Positions 17,113 to 42,018 of a stretch of DNA of 64,000 nt are shown in pieces. Position 1 is the stretch's first letter. Every line of letters starts with the position of its first letter. Location: the NCBI GenBank assembly GCA_025201845.1, contig MU603956.1, positions 97,826-161,825 of the forward strand, in the 5' to 3' direction. The notes below the pieces were generated by a model. The model saw only the letters and a program-made list of their open reading frames with translations. It was not told the DNA's origin and searched no databases. The DNA is from Martensiomyces pterosporus. Taxonomy: Eukaryota; Kickxellomycota; Kickxellomycetes; Kickxellales; Kickxellaceae. The position numbers were made by a program, and so were the translations under genes.

Positions 17113-18306
17113 ATGAAATGCGCAAGATGTCTCACACTTTTAGTTCCAATCGGCATCGCAATGCTCCCAGTGCCCATTTACGCGAGGACATCCCTACCCA
17201 TCGCCGGGGTTTTCGAGTGGATCAGCTCGAATGTCTTCAGCAAGTAAGTATGCAGCGCAAACAGCTAACAAGGGGTGAGCGATAAATGCCGCTATTTGCT
17301 GATCCGTGTTTGGTGTATTGCAAGTGCGTGGTGTAGCAAATACATCTCGTCGGAAATAAAGTTGATTGAATCGTGGGCATCCAGGCTAAATGTCCATCCG
17401 CCAGCATTCATGGCTGGCATGTCAGCAGGCAGTGGCATGGGGTGGGTTGGGAAACAAATAGGCAGCCAGCTTGCAGTGCTAAGTAATCAAGCAGCAGCTG
17501 TTCAGAGTGTGCTATCAACAAATGCTGCTGTGAACGACATTCTGCTGCCGTTGACAAATCTGCCCGAGTTTCTAGCAGATGTGCAATCAGCAATTACGGA
17601 CATGGAGTCAAAAGCATACACAGAAATACTGTATGTCCAGAGCGAAATCCAGGACTTTGGGGTTGATGTCTACAATGACATCTATGGGGCGCTTTCGGAT
17701 GTTGGCTTGGTACTGCTGTCCATTTACAATTTCTTCCAAAACCTACTGGGAGTCGTTCTGTCCAGCCCGCTACTCACCACAATAATAGGCGTGCTTAGTG
17801 TGAACCCAATGATTCTAGCATTTGTCGGCTTAGTCGCCTCCGACCCCTTAATGCTAATCAACAACTACGCGGGATGGCAGAGCGAAGTGAGCTCAAGAAG
17901 CGCCAAATTCAGTAGCAACTTTGGCCAAATGTACACTTTCATTTCTATTGGCCTGCCCAGGCTGGAGGGCGGATTGCTAGGTGTGGCCAGCGGAATAGCA
18001 AGCGTTGGAAACGGCGTTGTTGGCAACCCGAACAATGCACCCCAACAGCAGATATTCCAGCTGCTCAGCATATACCCAGTTCTGCTGGGTGCAGAGCTGA
18101 GTATGTTCTCCTCATCTGTAAGCCGGCAGCGAGCCCAAGCACCCAGCACTACGATGTCTACACATATGCCTCAAGCTGGAGAGGGCCAGTATTTCGAGGC
18201 TGAGGCTATTAATTACATGCCTACCGCATCGGCTAATACGAGGCTAAATGAAATTAATACCTACGCGTCTCCTCAGCCCACTGCGCATATATTAAAAGGC
18301 AGGTAG
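17113..18306 (+). CDS. Secreted protein of unknown family, 370 aa (2 exons)
   Basis: Exon 1 is 17113-17243 and exon 2 is 17325-18306, with an 81-nt GT-AG intron whose phases fit (Asn at the join). Exon 1 encodes a signal peptide (MKCARCLTLLVPIGIAMLP, cleavage likely after PIYA). The mature part has long amphipathic and hydrophobic stretches: an Ala/Val-rich segment near LAVLSNQAAAVQSVLS, a hydrophobic pair (VGLVLLSIYNFFQNLLGVVL and LLTTIIGVLSVNPMILAFVG), and a Gly/Ala segment (GGLLGVASGIASVGNGVVG). Few cysteines are present. I recognise no family. It opens a run of five plus-strand secreted genes. Membrane insertion through the hydrophobic stretches is an alternative to full secretion. Confidence 0.7.
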
Positions 18307-18477: not shown

Positions 18478-18900
18478 ATGAACCTGACTTCCGCCCTTGC
18501 CCTTACCTCGCTAGCTGCTCTTTCAAGTGCATTGCCGAGTAGGCGTGGTGACGTTAACTGGAATGTGCCAGTTGCACTTGTTGATGCGCAGGCAACAAGC
18601 TCGCTCCCCATTCTAGTTGCTTCAGTGAAGACAGCAGCTAGGCCAACTATTCAGCTGGTTGCTGGCCCGGCTCAGCCACTGACTCAGATATACGTGAATC
18701 CTAGGGCCGATAGGTCTGATAGGGCTGACAGAGATGCACGAAGGGAGGAGCACAGAAAGGAGTTACAGGAGTGGGCTCACCAGCAAGGCGAAAATGGCGT
18801 CTCCAATGGAACAAACTTTGTCTCCCAGATTCTAACCGGTGTGAGCGGTATAGTGGATTCAGCGCTTGGCCCAGTATATTCGCTCTTTGGCTACAACTAG
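18478..18900 (+). CDS. Small secreted protein, 140 aa, unknown family
   Basis: A single exon with a strong signal peptide (MNLTSALALTSLAALSSALP). It is followed at once by SRRGD, a possible dibasic Kex2 cleavage site. The middle is highly charged (RADRSDRADRDARREEHRKE), with an RxDR-type imperfect repeat predicted as helix. The tail (FVSQILTGVSGIVDSALGPV) is hydrophobic and amphipathic. There is no cysteine in the mature part and one N-glycosylation sequon (NGTN). No family recognised. Its promoter has a TATA box at 18385. Confidence 0.75.
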   Translation: MNLTSALALTSLAALSSALPSRRGDVNWNVPVALVDAQATSSLPILVASVKTAARPTIQLVAGPAQPLTQIYVNPRADRSDRADRDARREEHRKELQEWAHQQGENGVSNGTNFVSQILTGVSGIVDSALGPVYSLFGYN

Positions 18901-19164: not shown

Positions 19165-20010
19165 ATGCATATTAAGGCGAACACTCTGTTGCCCCTGCTT
19201 GTGGCCTTCAGCAGCTCGGCTGCGCTACCAGCAGGCAATCTTGTACAGAGACAGTTTACTGTTCCTACTGTGTCTGGCAACGGCCAAGGAAACATCAACA
19301 TTATCCTAGGAGGAGGCATATTTCCGACCATTACTTTGGGGGGAATGCTTGCAGGAAGCTCAACGGCTATTGCTGGTGGTGTCTCTGGCACCATAGGTGT
19401 TGGTGGCGGATCACTGCCCACCGGACTGGTTGGAGCCGGCGCTGGAGTTGCCGCAAACCCAAGTAATGTAGCGGGGCAGGTTTCAGGCACCGTCTCTGAG
19501 GGGGGATGGATGCCCATCTTACCAGAATTCAATGCAGGCGGTATTCTTGTTGGAAGCGGAGGCTTTAGTCTGTCAAGCAGCCTGGCAGTTGCTGGTGGAG
19601 TACATGGTGGCGGCCAGGCCACGATAGGCTACGGCGGCATATTTATGCCAATGTCTAACCTAGCAATTGGTGGCGGCGGAAACATTGGGTTTAACATAGT
19701 GAATGGCAGAGTGACATCCTCTAGCTCGTCGCCGACTCCAGCCTCTGCTCCGACATCAAGCACTTCCTCGGGTTCTACCACTACGCCCACTACAACTCCA
19801 GTCACAATTCCTACCACAACTCCCACCACAACCCCTGCTACAACTCCCACCACAACTCCTGCTACAACTCCCACCACAACCCCTGCTACAACTCCCACCA
19901 CAACCCCTGCTACAACTCCCACCACAACCCCTGCTACAACTCCCACCATAACACCTACCACAACACCCACCACAACCTCTACTTCAGCAACCACACCAAC
20001 AACTACCTAG
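19165..20010 (+). CDS. Glycine-rich secreted protein A with C-terminal TTTP repeats
   Basis: A single exon, 281 aa. The start at 19165 was chosen because it gives a signal peptide (MHIKANTLLPLLVAFSSSAA); the frame continues upstream to 18958 without sense. After NLVQRQ the mature protein begins FTVPTVSGNGQGNINIILGG. It carries a ~150-residue module of Gly-rich beta-like segments (LGGGIFPTITLGG, GVGGGSLPTGL, VSEGGW, IGYGGIFMPMSNLAIGGGGN). The same order of segments occurs in the genes at 20562 and 22107, so the three are paralogs. The C-terminus is a Ser/Thr/Pro region with an 8-residue unit (TTTPATTP) repeated about five times, a probable O-mannosylated stalk. The function is unknown; a cell-wall or extracellular-matrix role is a guess from composition. 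Confidence 0.8.
   Translation: MHIKANTLLPLLVAFSSSAALPAGNLVQRQFTVPTVSGNGQGNINIILGGGIFPTITLGGMLAGSSTAIAGGVSGTIGVGGGSLPTGLVGAGAGVAANPSNVAGQVSGTVSEGGWMPILPEFNAGGILVGSGGFSLSSSLAVAGGVHGGGQATIGYGGIFMPMSNLAIGGGGNIGFNIVNGRVTSSSSSPTPASAPTSSTSSGSTTTPTTTPVTIPTTTPTTTPATTPTTTPATTPTTTPATTPTTTPATTPTTTPATTPTITPTTTPTTTSTSATTPTTT
19800..19980 (+). repeat. 24-bp tandem repeat encoding TTTPATTP
   Basis: Near-identical units (ACCACAACCCCTGCTACAACTCCC and variants) lie in frame inside secreted protein A. They are a minisatellite coding for a Thr/Pro stalk. Confidence 0.8.
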
Positions 20011-20561
20011 TTTCATCTTTCATATTCCAAGTTGGCATGCATCCTACCTTGCTCAAGATTTAGTTTAGGACTAGCTCAAAAATAGATTTTTGAGGATTAA
20101 CAAATAATATCATTTGCAGCTAGCGAGAAAACCTTGCTAAGCAACCTGGTATACACTACCACAAACCTCCATTCGCTGCATATTGCATGCTCAGAGAAAT
20201 GCACGGCTGGCTATGTATCCCATTTAACCCAGAATTAAAACCAGCTGCAAACATACAGCCATAGGCGTAGCAGCTGTTTTTAATATAGGTCTGGCTTGTT
20301 GACTACATAGTATTAATACAAGCATATACATGTCACGACTACAGGATGGCGCTCAGCGTTGGAATTGCACTTGGCTGTGCCGTATCCTTGTCGAGAGCAA
20401 TGTATACACAGGTGGTAGAGCAATAAATATACTGCACATATGCTTCCATGTAGGCAGGGGTTTGCCAAGCTCTTGAAATGCCTATAGCCTATGCTTGTCA
20501 CCAGGACATAATAGATAGCTACAGATTTCCAGCATGCAGGCCTACAGACACTTACTCCACT
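20011..20561. other. Intergenic region within the secreted island
   Basis: AT-rich sequence between two paralogs, with no gene seen. An AT-rich word CAATAAATATA lies at about 20421, but there is no TATA box at the 80-95 bp spacing used by neighbours. Confidence 0.4.
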
Positions 20562-21712
20562 ATGCTATTACCCAGCTGCACAGCGCTAATGTACTTGGCG
20601 GCCCTTATCATGTAGATGCACCACTGCTTTCAGAGAAGCATGCTAGCGCTTATGAACCAGATGGGGTTTGGAATGCGCTTAATAGAAGTCAGCATGCAGA
20701 CGTGTTTTCCCGCATTGAATGCCATGTTTCTCCCCAAACCCAAAGAGACTTGCAACCATTGTGGAGACAAGCAAATCCTGAGAAAGTATGTAGACTCCAA
20801 AGCTCGGCTTTGGCCACTAGCTCCTTCGAAAACATACCATCTCAATCACCGATTTCAGCCACAGCTCCAAATAGTAGTGGAACCCCGCCTACGTTGATGT
20901 CAAACATACAAAGCAATATTGCAACAGCTTCAAACACTGGTTACACAACTACAGCTGGGCATCTAGTAGTAGGCGACTCAATAGCAGATAGTACAACAGC
21001 CACGGCATTATCCTCCAATACAGCAGCCACCACAACTGCCACAGTTACAGTGTCTACGCATTATATTGCCAGAGCCCATACAATCGCCCTGTCGGCTAGC
21101 TCAAGTGCAGCCGCAGCTGGCCAGTTACCTCTTAGCTGCGCAAGCCCCCGTCTTTCCTCAGCTGTAAAAATTATTGAGGGAGAGGAAACCCACAGAGCTG
21201 CACACAACATAAGGCTACCACGCAGTGGCAATATGCTGCCCAGAGTTTCAGGCAACGGCATCGTCCAAGGCAGCATTGTTCTTGGGGGTGGTATTTTGCC
21301 AACTCTTATGCTTGGGGGTTTAATTTACGGCTACACGAAAGGAGTAGGTCTTGGCGGCTCAGCAACAGTCGGAATTGGCGGAAATGTGCTGCCTACAGCA
21401 GCATTTGGGGGCGGCGTAGCCGGCGCAGTTAGTCAGCTGATCGTTAACGGGGCAGCTTCAGCAACCGCCCTTGAGGATGGCTGGTTAAATGGTTTTGTGC
21501 CTGCTATGAACAACGGTGCAAGTGTAGGAGGCGAAATCGGCGTGCTCCTGTCAAAAGGTATTCATGCAGTCCTGGGCTGGAATGGTGGCGGGTGGGACAC
21601 TATTAGATATGGCGGCCACTTTATCCCGACATCAACTTTAGCCATCAATATTGGCGGCGACTTTGGGTTTGAGGCCAGCAATGCCAAGACAACATCCACA
21701 GCACCTCCCTAA
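20562..21712 (+). CDS. Glycine-rich secreted protein B (2-exon model)
   Basis: The long open frame starts at 20534 but lacks a signal peptide. I propose exon 1 at 20562-20611 in another frame and a 182-nt GT-AG intron (donor GTAGAT, acceptor AGTATGTAG). Exon 2 is 20794-21712, in phase, giving 322 aa. The spliced N-terminus joins MLLPSCTALMYLAALI to ILQSSALATSS, an excellent signal peptide with an ALA cleavage site. Next comes a Ser/Thr/Ala-rich region, then LPRSGN and the glycine-rich module (VSGNGIVQGSIVLGGGILP, LGGSATVGIGGNVLPT, IRYGGHFIPTSTLAINIGGD) shared with the genes at 19165 and 22107. The module in this paralog lacks a Ser/Thr tail. If the unspliced frame is right, the protein has 392 aa and no evident secretion signal. 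Confidence 0.7.
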
Positions 21713-22106
21713 TCGAGCTTTCCTTCACAAAGATTACATTTGACACGGCAGCCATTCTTTCACAGCCGCCCTTATCTTCACCCGCTGACTGCCCTAGTAT
21801 ACAAAATATACACTGCCTTTCATCTATAGCTTGGTGGCTTATTACTAAGTGCCAATTGACTAGTCTAAACAAAAATGCAGTGAGTATATTCCAGTATATT
21901 TCCACAGCAGCATATTTTCCTATACACTTCCATTGCACATAACAAAAGTATCCTGCGCCAGTTGCAAACCTAAAGCGTATTGCAACCCAGAACTAGCCAT
22001 TTTCTTCTGACTACTAATAGGCTGGTATATAAGCCTATTAGCTGAGAGCATTAGGGAAGAGAAGCGACTAGACATATATTATTCCTGGTTCCCATCTATT
22101 CCTACA
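21713..22106. other. Intergenic region between secreted paralogs B and C
   Basis: 394 bp of AT-rich sequence containing the promoter of the gene at 22107. No gene seen. Confidence 0.4.
22026..22032 (+). promoter_or_regulatory. TATA box of glycine-rich secreted gene C
   Basis: TATATAA 81 bp upstream of the ATG at 22107. Confidence 0.5.
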
Positions 22107-23384
22107 ATGCAAGCAAACGTCCTCTTCCTTCTAGCCTACAATATCCTGCTTCAAGGAGCATTTACTCCTGTCAGTGCTGATGCGGAAGGTAAATATGCTC
22201 AGTCTGTAGAGGGCGTTAACCGGGACATACTACCTACAATCCAAAACCCGTGGAGTCTCGCTCCACCACTTAGCGTGTTTAGCTATGTCGCTTGCCAGAT
22301 TGCTTCTCGGCTTGAAGACGAACTCGAGGGAATTGGCAGTGAAACCGAGTCGGAAATGTCATGTCCTTTCCCCAGCTCATCGCCGTCTAGTTCATCATCC
22401 AGTTCTGCTACGTCTAGCAGTGGCTCTTCCACTTCCCCAACTAGCTCGTCAACATCTGTAACCAGTAGCTCTGGCACCAGCCCAAGCTCATCGTCCACAA
22501 CTGGCTCGTCCACTGGAACTAGCAGCTCGTCCACTGGTACTAGCAGCTCGTCCACTGGCACCAGCAGCTCTTCCACTGGCACCAGCAGCTCTTCCACTGG
22601 CACCAGTAGCTCTTCCACTGGCACCAGCAGCTCTTCCACTGGTACTAGCAGCTCGTCCACTGGTACTAGCACTTCTTCTTCCGCCCCCACATCCACTTCA
22701 TCCACCACCACCACCAGCTCATCTAGCTCCAGTACAACCCCTCCTACTATTGGTGTTACTGCCACTGCTACTGGCAGTGTTGGTGCCACTGTCCGTGTAG
22801 CCCACCCAAGCTTTAGCAGCGAGTATTATAAGCGCGACATCGCTCATCAGATGAGTGTTGAGCGCCAAGGAGTGCTGCCTACACTCTCAGGCAACGGTGT
22901 CGCCCTAGGCAGCATTGTTATTGGCGGCGGCTTGCTGCCTGCACTCACACTTGGTGGAATTATCGGCGGTGGCAACAACGGATTTGCCCTTGGCGGTTCG
23001 GCTACTGTTGCTGGTGGAGGAATAATATTGCCCTCGGTTTCCATTGGAGGCGGTGCAAGCGCTGTTATTAATCCATTCCTTATCAGCGGCACTGTTATTA
23101 ATCCAATGCTTATCAACGGCGCTGCATCGGGCACTATCTTTGAGGGCGGAGCGCTAAGTGGCTTGGTCCCAACTGTCGCAGCAGGTGCTAGCATCAGTGG
23201 CTTGGGCGGACTAATGGTTTCACCCACCATCAACGGCCTCCTTGCTGGAGACGCTGGCGCATCGGTATCGGTTGGGTATGCCGGGTTAATCCTACCTTCG
23301 TCGTCGTTTGTTGCCAACGTTGGCGGCAACTTTGACTTTGCCCTGAGTAACACTCCCCAGCCTACGTCAACCACAACTCACTGA
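22107..23384 (+). CDS. Glycine-rich secreted protein C with central Ser/Thr repeats
   Basis: A single exon, 425 aa. The signal peptide (MQANVLFLLAYNILLQGAF) is followed by a short acidic segment. A Ser/Thr-rich region comes next, with a 7-residue unit (STGTSSS) repeated about eight times, then YYKRD and SVERQ, possible processing sites. The C-terminal half is the glycine-rich module shared with the genes at 19165 and 20562 (VLPTLSGNGVALGSIVIGGG, LPALTLGGIIGGG, LGGSATVAGGG, VGYAGLILPSSSFVANVGGN). Here the Ser/Thr stalk is N-terminal to the module, the opposite order from protein A. The function is unknown. Ser/Thr density makes heavy O-mannosylation likely. Confidence 0.8.
   Translation: MQANVLFLLAYNILLQGAFTPVSADAEGKYAQSVEGVNRDILPTIQNPWSLAPPLSVFSYVACQIASRLEDELEGIGSETESEMSCPFPSSSPSSSSSSSATSSSGSSTSPTSSSTSVTSSSGTSPSSSSTTGSSTGTSSSSTGTSSSSTGTSSSSTGTSSSSTGTSSSSTGTSSSSTGTSSSSTGTSTSSSAPTSTSSTTTTSSSSSSTTPPTIGVTATATGSVGATVRVAHPSFSSEYYKRDIAHQMSVERQGVLPTLSGNGVALGSIVIGGGLLPALTLGGIIGGGNNGFALGGSATVAGGGIILPSVSIGGGASAVINPFLISGTVINPMLINGAASGTIFEGGALSGLVPTVAAGASISGLGGLMVSPTINGLLAGDAGASVSVGYAGLILPSSSFVANVGGNFDFALSNTPQPTSTTTH
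22508..22675 (+). repeat. 21-bp tandem repeat encoding STGTSSS
   Basis: In-frame units such as TCCACTGGCACCAGCAGCTCT, about eight copies with mostly synonymous differences, inside secreted protein C. Confidence 0.8.
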
Positions 23385-24128: not shown

Positions 24129-24362
24129 ATGACTCTTCCCGTAAAGGCCAAGTCCGCTGGAGCAGCCACCAAGGAGCACCACATCTCGCGCAACGGAGGC
24201 GATTCGCGCGGCCTCCCCAAGAAGGAGGGCGCCGGCAAGCACAACTGGGGCAAGGAGGGCCACGACGATGAGGAGGCCCTTGGAACCTCGCCTGTCTCGC
24301 AGCCAAAGATCCAGACTCTGGACGCTAAGGCGTTCGAGGCAGCAAAGAAGGCGGCCGAATAA
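24129..24362 (+). CDS. Small HABP4/STF2-like RNA- or ribosome-associated protein, 77 aa
   Basis: A single exon. The central segment DSRGLPKKEGAGKHNWGKEG matches the KK-x-GAG-x-HNWG signature of the HABP4/PAI-RBP1 family. It also resembles the short yeast proteins Stf2 and Tma10. In those families the motif region binds RNA or ribosomes, or is linked to stress and desiccation tolerance. The protein is very basic and polar and is probably disordered, with an acidic DDEE after the motif and an Ala/Lys helix at the end. A strong pyrimidine-rich leader suggests good expression. Which of the two families is closer cannot be decided without a search. Confidence 0.75.
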   Translation: MTLPVKAKSAGAATKEHHISRNGGDSRGLPKKEGAGKHNWGKEGHDDEEALGTSPVSQPKIQTLDAKAFEAAKKAAE

Positions 24363-36883: not shown

Positions 36884-39800
36884 TCATGTAGTGGGCTGCC
36901 GATCCTTGGCATGCTGCTGCTGGCCAGATGGCAGTACCGCAGGCTGTGGCGCTGGAGAAGAGGGCTTCACAGAGCTCCGGAGATGCGGGACTGGCTGCTG
37001 TTTCTGCTGCACCGTGATGGTAGCAGCAGTGTTGCTGGGATTCGAGCCTACAGGCGTTGCTGGTCTAGACATTGGCGAAGAATGCTGCTGCTGCTGCTGC
37101 TGGCTCTGGGGAGAGGGCCGTGCAGCAGGGCGCTGTTGGTGGTGTGCTGCAGTGACAGATCGCATCACAGGTCTTTGTCCTGGTGCCGCGGCTCCGGGTG
37201 CATGGCTCGCAGGCGAGTGAGTGGGCCGGTTCCCTGGGCGCTGCGGGCGAGGAACAGCGCTGCTGGGCATTGAGCTCCGCATGCCAGGAGAGTGAGGTCG
37301 CTGATGGCCATTCGCAGCCACCGGTCGACGCATGGGTGTGCCTGCGCCTGGTGCCACCGGTCTTGCAGCGGGCGGTCTGCGCTGCTGGTTTATCCCATTG
37401 GGGTGAGCGGCCGAGGGCGACGATGGCCGAACACCACTACCGCCATTCATCGGAGATGTGCCATTCGGCGGCGGTCGCCTGAGCACAGGCCGCTTGATCT
37501 GAGGACCTACAGGCGATCCCGCACCTCGCGTGTCTCCAGCTCCATTGGCTGGTGGTCGCTGCGGCATCCGGTGCGCGCTGCCGTTCATAGGGCGCATCAT
37601 TGGGCGCCTGGGAGGCCCACTGTTCGGTCCTGTGGTGCCAGCAGGCGACGGTGTGTTTGGCGCCGGCCTCACGCCAGCAGCAGTTCCATGGGGAGGCTGG
37701 TGCGACTGGGGCAGCTGCGGTCTGCTGACAGGAGTCTTGTGCTGCTGCGACTGCTGAGAGCCAGGGGGCGGTGGCGTAGCACGACCTGGCATTCCTGGAC
37801 GCACAGTGGGTGTCCGCTGAGCAGAAGAGGCTCCGGCAGACAGTGGCGAATAGCCCTGTCTGGCACCTGGCTGCGAGTTGTTCACCAGCCGACCCTGCGG
37901 AGATGGACGCGGCGGACGCTGCTGCTGTGGGCGAGAGACCGCAGGAGTGGTCTGTCGCTGCATTGGGCGGTTCATGGTGGCCGGCGATCTACTCACGCTG
38001 CTGCCATTCGCCCTGCTAGGACAAGAAACGGGTGCCGCCGACTTTGCCTGCGCTGCTGCTGACGGCGAACTGGTGGAGTTACGGTCAGCATTTGCTGTGG
38101 CTGCAGTGGCCGTTGACGACGGCGCACTACTGCTCGCTGCTGCAGGAGAGAGGGCGGTAGCCTCCGCTGCTGCCTGCCGTTGGTTCTGCGCAAGCGTGGC
38201 CATGCTCAGGGTGTGGTTGTAGATAGCGCTGGCTAGTCTCAGCACAACCGCAGCATCGGGAACGGACGACCCCTTGTTCCGCGCTCTGCCTCCCTTCGTG
38301 GCGGCCGCAGCCTGCTTGGACAGCGGCTTTCCACGCGGTATGCGGATCACTCGAGCACGCTTGCGAGCGCCACTCGGCCCACTGCCCTCGTCCTCATCGC
38401 CACCAACCTTTGCGCGCTTGCTACCGCTGTTGGCGTTACGGTACAAAAGGTAAGGAGCAACCGCCTGCTGCCGACCAGTGCTCTTTGCTGCTGCTGCTGC
38501 ACGCAAACGGAGCAGCAGGCTAGCCTTGGCATTGCCCGTGAATCCAAACGCCTCCATTGTTTGTGCCAGTCGAGCGTTCAGGCTGCCACCGGACTGCGCT
38601 GGGTGAGCGGACTTGCGATCCACTGTCTCGGTGATGCCAGCGCTGTCTGCTGTCATTGGAGTGTGCAGTGAGGACGCTGAGGAGGACCTCGACATCGTCA
38701 TAGCCGCACTGGAGAGCCTCTTGTGGCCAGGTGGAGATGGCGGTGGCGGCGGCGATGGCGGAGTAGAACAGCAGATCATGTCCACGTCGTTGTCGCCGCC
38801 TGGGATCACCATGCTCATGTCCAGGTCGTCGTTGTCGCTGCCTGGCTCGTCGCAGTCCATCGAGTCGTCAAAGTGCGTGTCCATCGAGGGCGGCAGGGGC
38901 TTTGTCGTCAGCGTCGACGAAATGGCTGCTGAGAGCTCCTGTGCATCGACTCCCCCGGGGTTAGATGTGGGGGAGCTGGTCGCCTTAGATGCTGCCAATG
39001 TGGTTACAAGGCCACTGGCAGCGGCTGACACGCCAAGGGATTCCGATGTCGGGGGTGCAGTGCTGTTGGAGTTGGCTGAGGGTCCAACAAGCGTGGGCTC
39101 ACTAACAAGAACAGACGCCAATGAAGCAGGCGGCTTCTGGGGCGATCCGTCGCTTGGGCTTTTCGGTCCACCGCTAGCCTTCGCTTGACGTGCGCTCTTC
39201 GCTGCACTGCTCACTGGCTGCTCGCCCTGGCCCTTTGATGCCAACGGCGAGCGCGAGGGCGTGCATTTTGTGGTACTAGCTGGTATAGTGCCCTGCGGCG
39301 ACTCGTTGTCCGTCGCCGGATGCGAGCGCTCTGCAGGCGACTGAGACTGCGACTGAATTGGGGACGGAGCCAGCGGTGCTTCATGCGCAGCAGATGTGCC
39401 CAGCATCGGACTCTCGGCGCTAAGCAGCTGGAGGAACGACTGCAGCTGCCTGTCATCCGAGCCAAAGATGGCCTTGGCGGCACCAGCAAAGTTAAACGAC
39501 CCGGATCTGGTAGCCAACGACTGGATGATCGAAGGCGAGGGAGTGCCGCGCGCTGTGGCGCCAAACGTGCTGGACCGCGAGATGCTCTGCGTGGGCTGGT
39601 GGTGGCTGCGAGGACCCTGGCCAGCGGTGGCCGAGTTGACCAAATGCTGGAACTCGATACCAAGGCCAGTCTCGCGTGCAGCCGCAGCCGCAGCGGCGGC
39701 AGCAGCAGCTGCCGCATTGACCACTGCGCTAGTGGCTGATGACGCCCCTGCACTGAGCACCTGCTGCTGTGTGATGTCTGTCGTGTCAGCGCTGACCATA

Positions 39801-41470
39801 GCGTTGGCGCCAGCAGCAATTGCTGGCTGAGGCGAGGCAAGAAGCACGCTGGTGGGGTCGGTGAAGAACGGCGTGATCAGGTGGCGGATGAACGACGTTG
39901 GCAGGGGCGCGGGGAAGTACGCCTCCAGGTTGTCGTTGAGGAAAGGGCCTAAGCGGTGGTTCAAGGAGCACGTGGCAGCCAGTGCGCGCGCCCTAGGCAG
40001 CGGAATCCACGTTCCGTAGAGCTTGCTTTGCGGTCGCCGCCACTTGAACCGCCCGACCTCGAGGCTCAGCACAATGCTGCGCTCCTGCTCCGACGCAACA
40101 CCGCCAGCGAGGAGGAGCGACGATGCGTTGACGTAGCCGTTCTCAACCAGCCGAAGCAGCCGGTGTCGCCGGACGATCCATTTGCCTTGGCAATCAGCTG
40201 CAGGCTCGGTGGTGGTCATCACCGTCATATATACAGGCACAGTTTCGACGATGGTAAGCACTATCCGAGGCGACACGGGCACCTTTGTCGCCACCATTGC
40301 CGTTGGCGGGATGTCTGCAAAGGGATCTGGCAAAATGACCTTGCTGCACGAGGCGGAGGACGCCTCTTCATGCTCGTCTGTGTTTCCGCTAGGCGCCTTG
40401 GCCAACTCCAGCGTGTCGGGATCAAGGGGCTTGGATACACTGGTCGCCCTTGACTGCTGCTGCTGCTGCTCCTGCTTTTCGCCCTTCACAGGCTTTTCTA
40501 CGTCTCCTTGCTCTTGCTTCACACTCGGTTTGTGCGAGGCAGATGCTGTCGATGACGACCGCGATACGACAGAGGCCGGGGCCCGCTGGTCGCTGACACT
40601 GCTGGAGGCTGTAGACACCTTTGAGGGAGAGGTGCCTGCAGCGGCTGCGCCATTCGCCTTCTTCTCCTCCGCAGCCGATGGTGGCGACGACTCGGAGGCA
40701 TCCGCGGCATACTTGGAAGAGTTCTTCGACAGGGCCAGGAGCTTTTGTGTGAGCTTCGAGGACAGGTCGTCGTGCGCGGCATCCCCCAGGCACTTGCCGC
40801 CGTCGCCACTGCAATTAATACTACGGCTATTTACATTAGCTGTTGAGCTTTGGCTGGCCATGCGAGTAGGATCCTGCTCCTCCGTCGCGAGGACACCAGA
40901 CATTCTGGCATGTGTCGGACACTGCAAATTGTCGTCATCAGAGAAGGGCCCTCCCACCGAGGGATTGGAGTTCGTCCAGAGCTTGTCCAGCTCGTTGACC
41001 GACATCAGCTCGGCGTCCATCAGGTCGTGGAAGCTATTGAAGTCAAAGCTGCCGCCTGCACCCAAGTCCGAATCAATATCGTGCTCGGCTTTGATATAAA
41101 GCGCGGCGCCGGTCGTGTTAACTGCTGTTGCTGTTGTTGTTGCCCTCGCCGCAGCCGCTCCTGCTGACCTCACAATTATTGAATCTGACGAAAGCAATGG
41201 CTGAGCAAAGGGTGCCTTTTCAGCAGCTGCAGCTAAAGGCTCCAGTTGCCGCTTGGCACCGGCTGCTACTGCTACTGCTGTTGTTTGCTTGCCGGCTGGG
41301 GGCAATGTGCCAATTACAGCCGAGGGCATACTGGGGCAGTCCGCTGTTTTGGCTGCTAATGCCACCAGGGGTCTGCGTAAAGGAGAGGCAGTGCTGCTGC
41401 TGCTTGCTGGGTGTGTGTCTGCTGTAGCGTCGTCTACTCGTTCCACGCGATCGAGAGAGCAGTTGTCCAT
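36884..41470 (-). CDS. KilA-N/APSES-domain nuclear protein (possibly the 3' exon of the GDS1-type gene)
   Basis: An uninterrupted frame of 1528 codons from the ATG at 41470. Residues ~400-520 form a KilA-N/APSES-like DNA-binding domain: VRRHRLLRLVENGYVNASSL, LLAGG, ERSIVLSLEVGRFKWRR, LYGTWIPLPRARALAATCSL and LGPFLNDNLEAYFP. The rest is Ser/Ala/Thr-rich. It has a Gln run near 334-338 and a very Pro/Arg/Gln-rich tail from about residue 1150 (RPQQQRPPRPSPQ, repeated RPxxR). The tail resembles a disordered activation or scaffold region. It is probably a transcription factor. The ATG at 41470 may lie in an intron: a 154-nt AG-free, pyrimidine-rich tract ends at an acceptor at 41435, in phase with the upstream gene. 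See the findings. Confidence 0.75.
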   Translation of the reverse strand: MDNCSLDRVERVDDATADTHPASSSSTASPLRRPLVALAAKTADCPSMPSAVIGTLPPAGKQTTAVAVAAGAKRQLEPLAAAAEKAPFAQPLLSSDSIIVRSAGAAAARATTTATAVNTTGAALYIKAEHDIDSDLGAGGSFDFNSFHDLMDAELMSVNELDKLWTNSNPSVGGPFSDDDNLQCPTHARMSGVLATEEQDPTRMASQSSTANVNSRSINCSGDGGKCLGDAAHDDLSSKLTQKLLALSKNSSKYAADASESSPPSAAEEKKANGAAAAGTSPSKVSTASSSVSDQRAPASVVSRSSSTASASHKPSVKQEQGDVEKPVKGEKQEQQQQQSRATSVSKPLDPDTLELAKAPSGNTDEHEEASSASCSKVILPDPFADIPPTAMVATKVPVSPRIVLTIVETVPVYMTVMTTTEPAADCQGKWIVRRHRLLRLVENGYVNASSLLLAGGVASEQERSIVLSLEVGRFKWRRPQSKLYGTWIPLPRARALAATCSLNHRLGPFLNDNLEAYFPAPLPTSFIRHLITPFFTDPTSVLLASPQPAIAAGANAMVSADTTDITQQQVLSAGASSATSAVVNAAAAAAAAAAAAARETGLGIEFQHLVNSATAGQGPRSHHQPTQSISRSSTFGATARGTPSPSIIQSLATRSGSFNFAGAAKAIFGSDDRQLQSFLQLLSAESPMLGTSAAHEAPLAPSPIQSQSQSPAERSHPATDNESPQGTIPASTTKCTPSRSPLASKGQGEQPVSSAAKSARQAKASGGPKSPSDGSPQKPPASLASVLVSEPTLVGPSANSNSTAPPTSESLGVSAAASGLVTTLAASKATSSPTSNPGGVDAQELSAAISSTLTTKPLPPSMDTHFDDSMDCDEPGSDNDDLDMSMVIPGGDNDVDMICCSTPPSPPPPPSPPGHKRLSSAAMTMSRSSSASSLHTPMTADSAGITETVDRKSAHPAQSGGSLNARLAQTMEAFGFTGNAKASLLLRLRAAAAAKSTGRQQAVAPYLLYRNANSGSKRAKVGGDEDEGSGPSGARKRARVIRIPRGKPLSKQAAAATKGGRARNKGSSVPDAAVVLRLASAIYNHTLSMATLAQNQRQAAAEATALSPAAASSSAPSSTATAATANADRNSTSSPSAAAQAKSAAPVSCPSRANGSSVSRSPATMNRPMQRQTTPAVSRPQQQRPPRPSPQGRLVNNSQPGARQGYSPLSAGASSAQRTPTVRPGMPGRATPPPPGSQQSQQHKTPVSRPQLPQSHQPPHGTAAGVRPAPNTPSPAGTTGPNSGPPRRPMMRPMNGSAHRMPQRPPANGAGDTRGAGSPVGPQIKRPVLRRPPPNGTSPMNGGSGVRPSSPSAAHPNGINQQRRPPAARPVAPGAGTPMRRPVAANGHQRPHSPGMRSSMPSSAVPRPQRPGNRPTHSPASHAPGAAAPGQRPVMRSVTAAHHQQRPAARPSPQSQQQQQQHSSPMSRPATPVGSNPSNTAATITVQQKQQPVPHLRSSVKPSSPAPQPAVLPSGQQQHAKDRQPTT

Positions 41471-42018
41471 ATGCGGTGCGGCATAACAAGCAAGGGAGAG
41501 AAGAAAGGCGGGGCGTGGAGGGAAAAGAGCGGTGTATTAGGGTGGATTAGTGCACGCGCAGATAGAGGGGCAATTACAGCAATAGTAATAAGCACTTGTG
41601 AAAGCGGTGTGGGTAGTGCGTATGCGCGGGCGAGCGAGGCAAGAGCCGAAAATTCAGAAAAGCACAATAATATAAAGGTCGCGCGCTGTTTGTACAGGCG
41701 AGAAGGGGAAGGAGCAGAGGGGCTGCGACATCAGCTTGCCCCGCACGACATAAGCAATTGCTTTGCCCCCAATAAAAGTCAAACAAAGAGAGAGTGAGCA
41801 ACCACGGCACGAGAACAAGCGGTGTCTGAGAGTGGCTGCTCTGGCTTGAGCGCGATTTGTTGGCTGGGGTATTCCAGCCAGTGAGACCGCTTCCTCCATG
41901 CAGGCACACAGCCAGCAGGCGGAGAAGAGCAAAAGGCAAGCAATCAGGCGGGAAGGGGGCGAGAAGCGCGGATTAATGAAGAAATGAAGAATGAGCGAGT
42001 GAATGCATGCATGCTTAC

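What the first reader, a model, noticed from the sequence alone, without database searches (positions are those of the whole stretch)
19165..23384. New-looking family of glycine-rich secreted proteins in tandem
Three neighbouring genes encode a signal peptide plus a ~150-residue module with the same ordered segments: SGNG-x-GSI-x-GGG-xLP, LGGSATVG-xGG, a Gly/Ala segment, an EGG/EDG-W or related step, and YGG-xFxPxSxLA-xNIGG. I know no described family with this layout. The alternation of Gly pairs with short hydrophobic strands suggests stacked beta-turns or a beta-solenoid-like fold. Tandem copies on one strand suggest a lineage-specific cell-wall or extracellular-matrix family. The island also uses more A/T-ending codons than its housekeeping neighbours.
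Basis: partly seen in the sequence, partly recalled or inferred. Interest (0 to 1): 0.75.

Follow-up and report, generated by a model that had tools for sequence, protein, structure and literature searches.

The report
Kickxellaceae glycine-rich secreted protein family
Three neighbouring genes of the fungus Martensiomyces pterosporus belong to a small, apparently undescribed family of glycine-rich, probably secreted proteins shared with its relative Coemansia; it may be a surface or wall protein, but its fold and function are unknown.

Summary
The three modules are real and homologous (36-46% identity; E 9e-10 to 2e-25) and the only copies found in this Martensiomyces pterosporus genome. Pfam, NCBIfam, PHROGs and PDB sequences gave no meaningful match. 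A profile search found five Coemansia relatives. The tree splits g1-like from g2/g3-like modules (97/99), each side holding both genera, so that duplication is old; the g2/g3 split is undated. Two Coemansia gene models join the module to homologues of genes flanking the array here, suggesting conserved gene order. The module is Cys-free, 23-27% Gly, poor in charges, and made of degenerate repeats with five conserved Pro columns. Both AlphaFold2 jobs failed (pLDDT 35 and 37), so the beta-solenoid idea stays untested. Hydrophobic N-termini fit signal peptides in g1 and g3, not g2. Low GC3 is confirmed, but the spacers are AT-rich too. Best reading: a new family of secreted structural surface or wall proteins; function inferred, not shown.

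The parts
19165..20010 (+). g1: 281-aa ORF, putative signal peptide, module, Thr/Pro-rich tail
   Evidence: groups with Coemansia P0005 and P0006
19165..19233 (+). putative signal peptide of g1 (hydropathy; end set by eye)
   Evidence: best 9-mer hydropathy 2.41
19249..19722 (+). module of g1
19790..19977 (+). 24-bp minisatellite (7.8 copies) coding for the Thr/Pro-rich tail of g1
20534..21712 (+). g2: 392-aa ORF, Ser/Thr-rich N-terminal part without clear signal peptide, module at the C-terminus
   Evidence: database protein P0002 equals its last 159 residues
21218..21700 (+). module of g2; conserved Pro columns at module residues 8, 28, 59, 95, 137
22107..23384 (+). g3: 425-aa ORF (418 aa in the public model GQ54DRAFT_303252), putative signal peptide, stretch with two Cys, Ser-rich linker, module
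22107..22178 (+). putative signal peptide of g3 (hydropathy; end set by eye)
   Evidence: best 9-mer hydropathy 2.21
22504..22678 (+). 21-bp minisatellite (8 copies; also seen as a 63-bp period) coding for the Ser/Thr/Gly linker of g3
22830..22835 (+). dibasic KR ahead of the g3 module, possible kexin site
   Evidence: a pair also lies upstream of the module in P0003, P0004 and P0006, none in g1 or g2
22866..23366 (+). module of g3
23062..23124 (+). 30-bp tandem duplication inside the g3 module, at the place of its 10-residue insertion
18478..18900 (+). g0: 140-aa ORF with putative signal peptide; a homologue is joined to the module in the Coemansia javaensis gene model P0006; a GTGAGC donor at 18841 could join it in frame to the g1 module here

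Best explanation
A small family of secreted structural proteins of Kickxellaceae. The chain enters the secretory pathway by an N-terminal signal peptide (g1, g3), may be cut by kexin at a basic site ahead of the module (g3, P0003, P0004, P0006), carries an O-glycosylated Ser/Thr-rich stalk (tail in g1, linker in g3), and presents a Cys-free, charge-poor, Gly-rich repeat module that packs or self-associates through beta-strands at the hyphal or spore surface or in the wall. Shown: homology, repeat architecture of the profile, presence in Coemansia, two old subfamilies. Inferred: secretion, kexin cleavage, glycosylation, beta structure, self-association and location.
For: Modules homologous beyond composition. 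Relatives in five Coemansia records, E 9.7e-49 to 1.8e-8. Repeats: profile self-alignment 58.1 against a maximum of 32.6 in 100 column shuffles and 41.0 in 100 three-column block shuffles. Five Pro columns, Pro in 6 of 6, 7 of 7, 7 of 7, 6 of 7 and 6 of 7 rows with a letter. Of 24 invariant columns of the 7-row alignment 14 are Gly, 4 Ser, 2 Pro, 2 Thr, 1 Leu, 1 Tyr. The three modules have 0 Cys, 23-27% Gly, 0-6 basic and 2-6 acidic residues; GRAVY 0.43-0.91 in the 5 sequences measured. Hydrophobic N-termini of g0, g1, g3 and P0006. Ser/Thr-coding minisatellites in g1 and g3. Hydropathy alternation at 180 degrees: z at least 1.0 in 6 of 7 modules (at least 2.7 in 3), -0.4 in g3; at 100 degrees z -0.6 to 1.6.
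Against: Both AlphaFold2 models are without confidence. Of the 7 N-termini scored, g2, P0003 and P0007 show no hydrophobic start. Of the 7 family proteins scanned for KR/RR, g1 and g2 have none upstream of the module and P0005 begins inside the module, so it cannot tell (P0007 was not scanned). Taken one at a time, P0003, P0004 and P0006 do not show the internal repeat clearly (2, 3 and 15 of 60 block shuffles reach the score). No hydrophobic GPI-type tail is visible in the three ORFs, so wall anchoring is unexplained. No expression or localisation data.
Confidence: 0.5

Rival explanations
1. The module is a secreted binding or effector-like domain (for a glycan, a competing microbe or a host) held by a mucin-like stalk, not a structural material.
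For: Stalk-plus-domain layout of g1 and g3; several putative secreted proteins side by side (upstream gene, g0, g1, g3) in one AT-rich island (the N-terminus of the upstream gene judged by eye); long branches, median end branch 0.83 changes per column.
Against: No Cys and few charged residues in the three modules; the invariant columns are mostly Gly (14 of 24), as in structural repeats rather than binding pockets (inference).
Confidence: 0.25
2. The module is a disordered or low-complexity Gly-rich segment with no fold.
For: pLDDT under 50 at all 161 residues and at 206 of 207.
Against: Segment order and five Pro columns with spacings 20, 31, 36 and 42 in g2-module numbering are kept across genera; homology far above composition-matched shuffles. 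Low pLDDT is to be expected from alignments of only 7 and 8 sequences.
Confidence: 0.15
3. Some gene models are wrong (not exclusive with the above): g0 and g1 are one gene (g0 exon joined to the g1 module), and the long N-terminal part of g2 is not translated.
For: The C. javaensis model P0006 joins a g0 homologue to a g1-type module; here a GTGAGC donor lies directly after the last residue of g0 aligned with P0006, in phase with acceptors ending at 19248 and 19254. P0002 begins at Met-234 of the g2 ORF.
Against: In-frame joins are not rare: the scan gave 21 donor-acceptor pairs from 4 donors in g0. g1 has its own Met and hydrophobic N-terminus, and AATAAA follows the g0 stop (by eye). Fused models are a common annotation error (recalled). 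The g2 N-terminal part shares a two-Cys stretch with g3: 0 of 1000 shuffles reach the score with the unspliced g3, 5 of 1000 with the public g3 model.
Confidence: 0.3

Closest known systems
Ustilago maydis Rep1 repellent (passages of PMC4617103)
   Same: Secreted repetitive fungal protein with kexin processing and a surface role; a works-like analogy only.
   Different: Rep1 has 12 repeats of 34-55 aa separated by Kex2 sites and is cut into separate peptides; here no KR or RR lies inside the module. No sequence comparison with Rep1 was made.
SsGsr1 of Sclerotinia sclerotiorum (abstract and passages of PMC10269696)
   Same: Gly-rich repeats plus a Ser-rich region in a fungal surface protein; minisatellite-coded repeats.
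   Different: 11-aa repeats, near-identical and in tandem, and a GPI anchor; here the repeats are degenerate with anchors 20-42 residues apart and no GPI-type tail is visible. No sequence comparison was made.
Hydrophobins (Pfam PF01185, PF06766)
   Same: Would be a functional counterpart if the module coats surfaces.
   Different: Hydrophobins have an eight-Cys pattern (recalled); the three modules have no Cys.

Membership tests
Any Pfam-A, NCBIfam or PHROGs family | profile match above the curated cut-off, or a significant E-value, in the module | tested here: not met
   Pfam: 0 families up to E 1 for g1, g2 and g3; of 7 module-bearing rows scanned, 1 row with one hit, 16.9 bits against a cut-off of 23. 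NCBIfam: g1 one and g3 two hits of 15-17 bits against cut-offs of 180-625, g2 none. PHROGs, 7 rows: one hit, E 0.18.
Proteins of solved structure | sequence match in the module | tested here: not met
   g3: two hits, E 7.2e-4 and 0.34, both within residues 87-245, the Ser/Thr-rich part; profile A3: one hit, E 0.55. g1 and g2 were not searched singly.
Hydrophobin | eight-Cys pattern (recalled) | tested here: not met
   0 Cys in the three modules
Hydrophobin | hydrophobin genes absent from this genome (would make a replacement plausible) | tested here: inconclusive
   no match, but none of the 14 control genomes matched either
Kex2-processed repeat proteins (Rep1-like) | basic kexin sites between repeats | tested here: not met
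   no KR or RR inside the module of g1, g2, g3, P0003, P0004, P0005 or P0006 (P0007 not scanned)
Beta-solenoid proteins | regular beta coils in a structure | tested here: inconclusive
   mean pLDDT 35.4 and 37.3
GPI-anchored wall proteins | hydrophobic C-terminal GPI signal | tested here: inconclusive
   C-termini of g1, g2 and g3 are Ser/Thr/Pro-rich and not hydrophobic, read by eye; no predictor, gene ends not verified

The most novel reading that the evidence does not exclude
A Kickxellaceae-specific self-assembling material protein with a new Gly-Pro repeat fold, for instance of the spore surface or of the lenticular septal cavity that characterises the group.
Probability: 0.1. Interest if true: 0.65.

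Novelty: new variant of a known kind. Interest (0 to 1): 0.4.

Why it matters
The structural proteins of walls, spores and septa of these early-branching fungi are poorly known (own knowledge). A clade-restricted, old family with conserved neighbours and a distinctive module gives a concrete target for that question and a candidate for a new Pfam family. If the module folds into or assembles as regular beta structure, it may be a new repeat fold. At present it is a new uncharacterised family, not a mechanism.

Tried and rejected
Structure prediction of the g2 module (7 rows) and of P0003 (8 rows) failed; no fold search was made because low-confidence models give meaningless matches. Single-protein homologue searches: g3 found only its own public protein among 7998 scored candidates and missed P0006 and P0007, which lie within its length limits; g2 found nothing up to E 1 among 1436. 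The profile search worked, but it takes only proteins of about 92-292 aa. Prokaryote and virus collections: 10 and 24 stretches matched a pattern, none was a relative; one and two patterns were used, so this is weak. Absence of hydrophobins could not be shown.

A shared N-terminal two-Cys domain of g2, g3 and P0007 is only partly supported: g2/g3 0 or 5 of 1000 shuffles, g2/P0007 12 of 1000, g3/P0007 673 of 1000; against P0003 147 (g3) and 505 (g2) of 1000. Signal regions of g1 and P0006 are not alike (742 of 1000). Internal repeats one sequence at a time: 0 of 60 block shuffles reach the score in 4 of 7 modules (g1, g2, g3, P0005), but 2, 3 and 15 of 60 in P0003, P0004 and P0006.

Paper searches: 5 of 5 papers listed; none; 15 of 249; 4 of 4; 15 of 346; 8 of 13; 12 of 321; 10 of 19. 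In the titles and abstract openings listed I saw no description of the family; the library is open-access only. Passages were read of PMC10386755, PMC6492006, PMC10269696, PMC6339444 and PMC4617103, no paper in full.

Rows dropped: P0007 (module incomplete) from A3, the tree and the repeat tests; P0002 (part of g2) from all alignments.

Full report
The window lies in a genome of 17.4 Mb held in 216 contigs. Residues 262-425 of the g3 ORF match the public protein GQ54DRAFT_303252 of Martensiomyces pterosporus at 100%; the species belongs to Kickxellaceae. The public model has 418 aa, lacking seven residues near the N-terminus of my 425-aa reading. This fits a 21-nt intron at 22189-22209, which is so short that I doubt it.

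Observation. Three + strand ORFs, g1 19165-20010, g2 20534-21712 and g3 22107-23384, carry the module. In the alignment g3 is 43% identical to g2 and 36% to g1. Local scores beat 500 of 500 shuffles for each of 3 pairs, z 22.1 (g1/g2), 15.4 (g1/g3) and 27.7 (g2/g3). Whole-genome searches with the g3 and the g2 module each return exactly these three places up to E = 1.

Known families. Pfam gives nothing for g1, g2 or g3; NCBIfam, Pfam by row, PHROGs and PDB sequences give sub-threshold hits or hits outside the module.

Relatives. The profile of the three modules against 5.8 billion proteins gave 6 proteins at E up to 1 among 7996 scored candidates: the window's own g2 part (P0002, 5.1e-70) and five Coemansia proteins, P0003 (9.7e-49), P0004 (3.0e-37, partial), P0005 (1.1e-32, partial), P0006 (2.5e-25) and P0007 (1.8e-8). 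No relative outside Kickxellaceae appeared. The search depends on shared five-residue words, a limit on candidates and a length window, and single-sequence searches missed relatives, so absence elsewhere is not proved.

Evolution. A tree of seven modules (P0002 and P0007 left out) has one well supported inner branch of four, 97/99, between g1, P0005, P0006 on one side and g2, g3, P0003, P0004 on the other; the order inside each side is open. Each side holds both genera, so wherever the root lies the Martensiomyces copies are not one clade, and at least this duplication predates the separation of the genera (barring transfer). Whether g2 and g3 split before or after it is unresolved.

Gene order. 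P0006 (C. javaensis) begins with a 100-residue homologue of g0, the ORF just upstream of g1 (score 175 against a shuffle maximum of 57, 0 of 1000; 22 of 28 identical in the core), followed by the module. P0007 (Coemansia sp. RSA 988) holds an incomplete module followed by a homologue of the small HABP4/PAI-RBP1-like ORF downstream of g3 (34 of 89 identical, E 1e-15; the Pfam match, E 0.0017, is below its cut-off). These are fused gene models or true fusions; either way they suggest the same neighbours in Coemansia. This is inferred from proteins; no Coemansia DNA was available. In the window a GTGAGC donor stands directly after the last g0 residue aligned to P0006, in phase with acceptors ahead of the g1 module; the same scan gave 21 in-frame pairs from 4 donors, so phase alone proves little.

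Architecture. The three modules have no Cys, 23-27% Gly and few charges; 14 of 24 invariant columns of the 7-row alignment are Gly. The profile aligns with itself off the diagonal: 58.1 against maxima of 32.6 and 41.0 in two sets of 100 shuffles. Five columns hold a conserved Pro at g2-module positions 8, 28, 59, 95 and 137, spacings 20, 31, 36 and 42, often after a Gly pair and a Leu, Ile or Val (by eye). Single sequences show the repeat less clearly: 0 of 60 block shuffles reach the score in g1, g2, g3 and P0005, but 2, 3 and 15 of 60 in P0003, P0004 and P0006. g3 has a 30-bp tandem duplication inside its module; g1 has a Thr/Pro tail and g3 a Ser-rich linker, both coded by minisatellites. 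g1 and g3 have hydrophobic N-termini, g2 does not. A KR or RR pair lies upstream of the module in g3, P0003, P0004 and P0006, not in g1 or g2.

Structure. The models contain strands and no helix, but cannot be trusted. The fold question stays open.

Composition. GC3 of g1-g3 is 0.42-0.49, of g0 and the ORF upstream 0.49 and 0.53, of 12 other ORFs 0.59-0.77; four stretches between the island's ORFs have GC 0.40-0.44, five other stretches taken as spacers 0.52-0.55. The island as a whole is AT-rich. Relatives with matching neighbours in Coemansia argue against a recent foreign origin.

Mechanism. The best-supported reading is a secreted structural surface or wall protein whose charge-poor Gly-rich repeat module packs into or assembles as beta structure on a glycosylated stalk. 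Functional analogues, not tested as relatives, are the Rep1 repellent (passages) and SsGsr1 (passages). Kickxellaceae have septa with a lenticular cavity (passage of PMC6492006); a link with it is speculation.

Verdict. A real, apparently undescribed, clade-restricted family with old paralogues; fold and function unknown.

Noticed in passing
17113-18306 +: Upstream gene with a hydrophobic N-terminus (by eye) and a plausible GTAAGT intron (366 or 350 aa by the two models with that donor); no Pfam match up to E 1 for its main ORF and one place only in the genome up to E 10; part of the same AT-rich island.
   Followed up: partly
18478-18900 +: g0: one place only in the genome up to E 10; a stretch of 28 residues is 79% identical to C. 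javaensis P0006, more than the module; an RR pair ahead of it in both suggests a kexin-released peptide.
   Followed up: partly
24129-24362 +: Small HABP4/PAI-RBP1-like protein (Pfam E 0.0017, below cut-off) whose homologue is joined to a module in Coemansia sp. RSA 988.
   Followed up: partly
22189-22209 +: The public g3 protein lacks seven residues here, which fits a 21-nt intron; the frame is open either way, so it may be an annotation artefact.
   Followed up: no
36887-41536 -: Open frame of 1550 aa without a Pfam match up to E 0.001.
   Followed up: no
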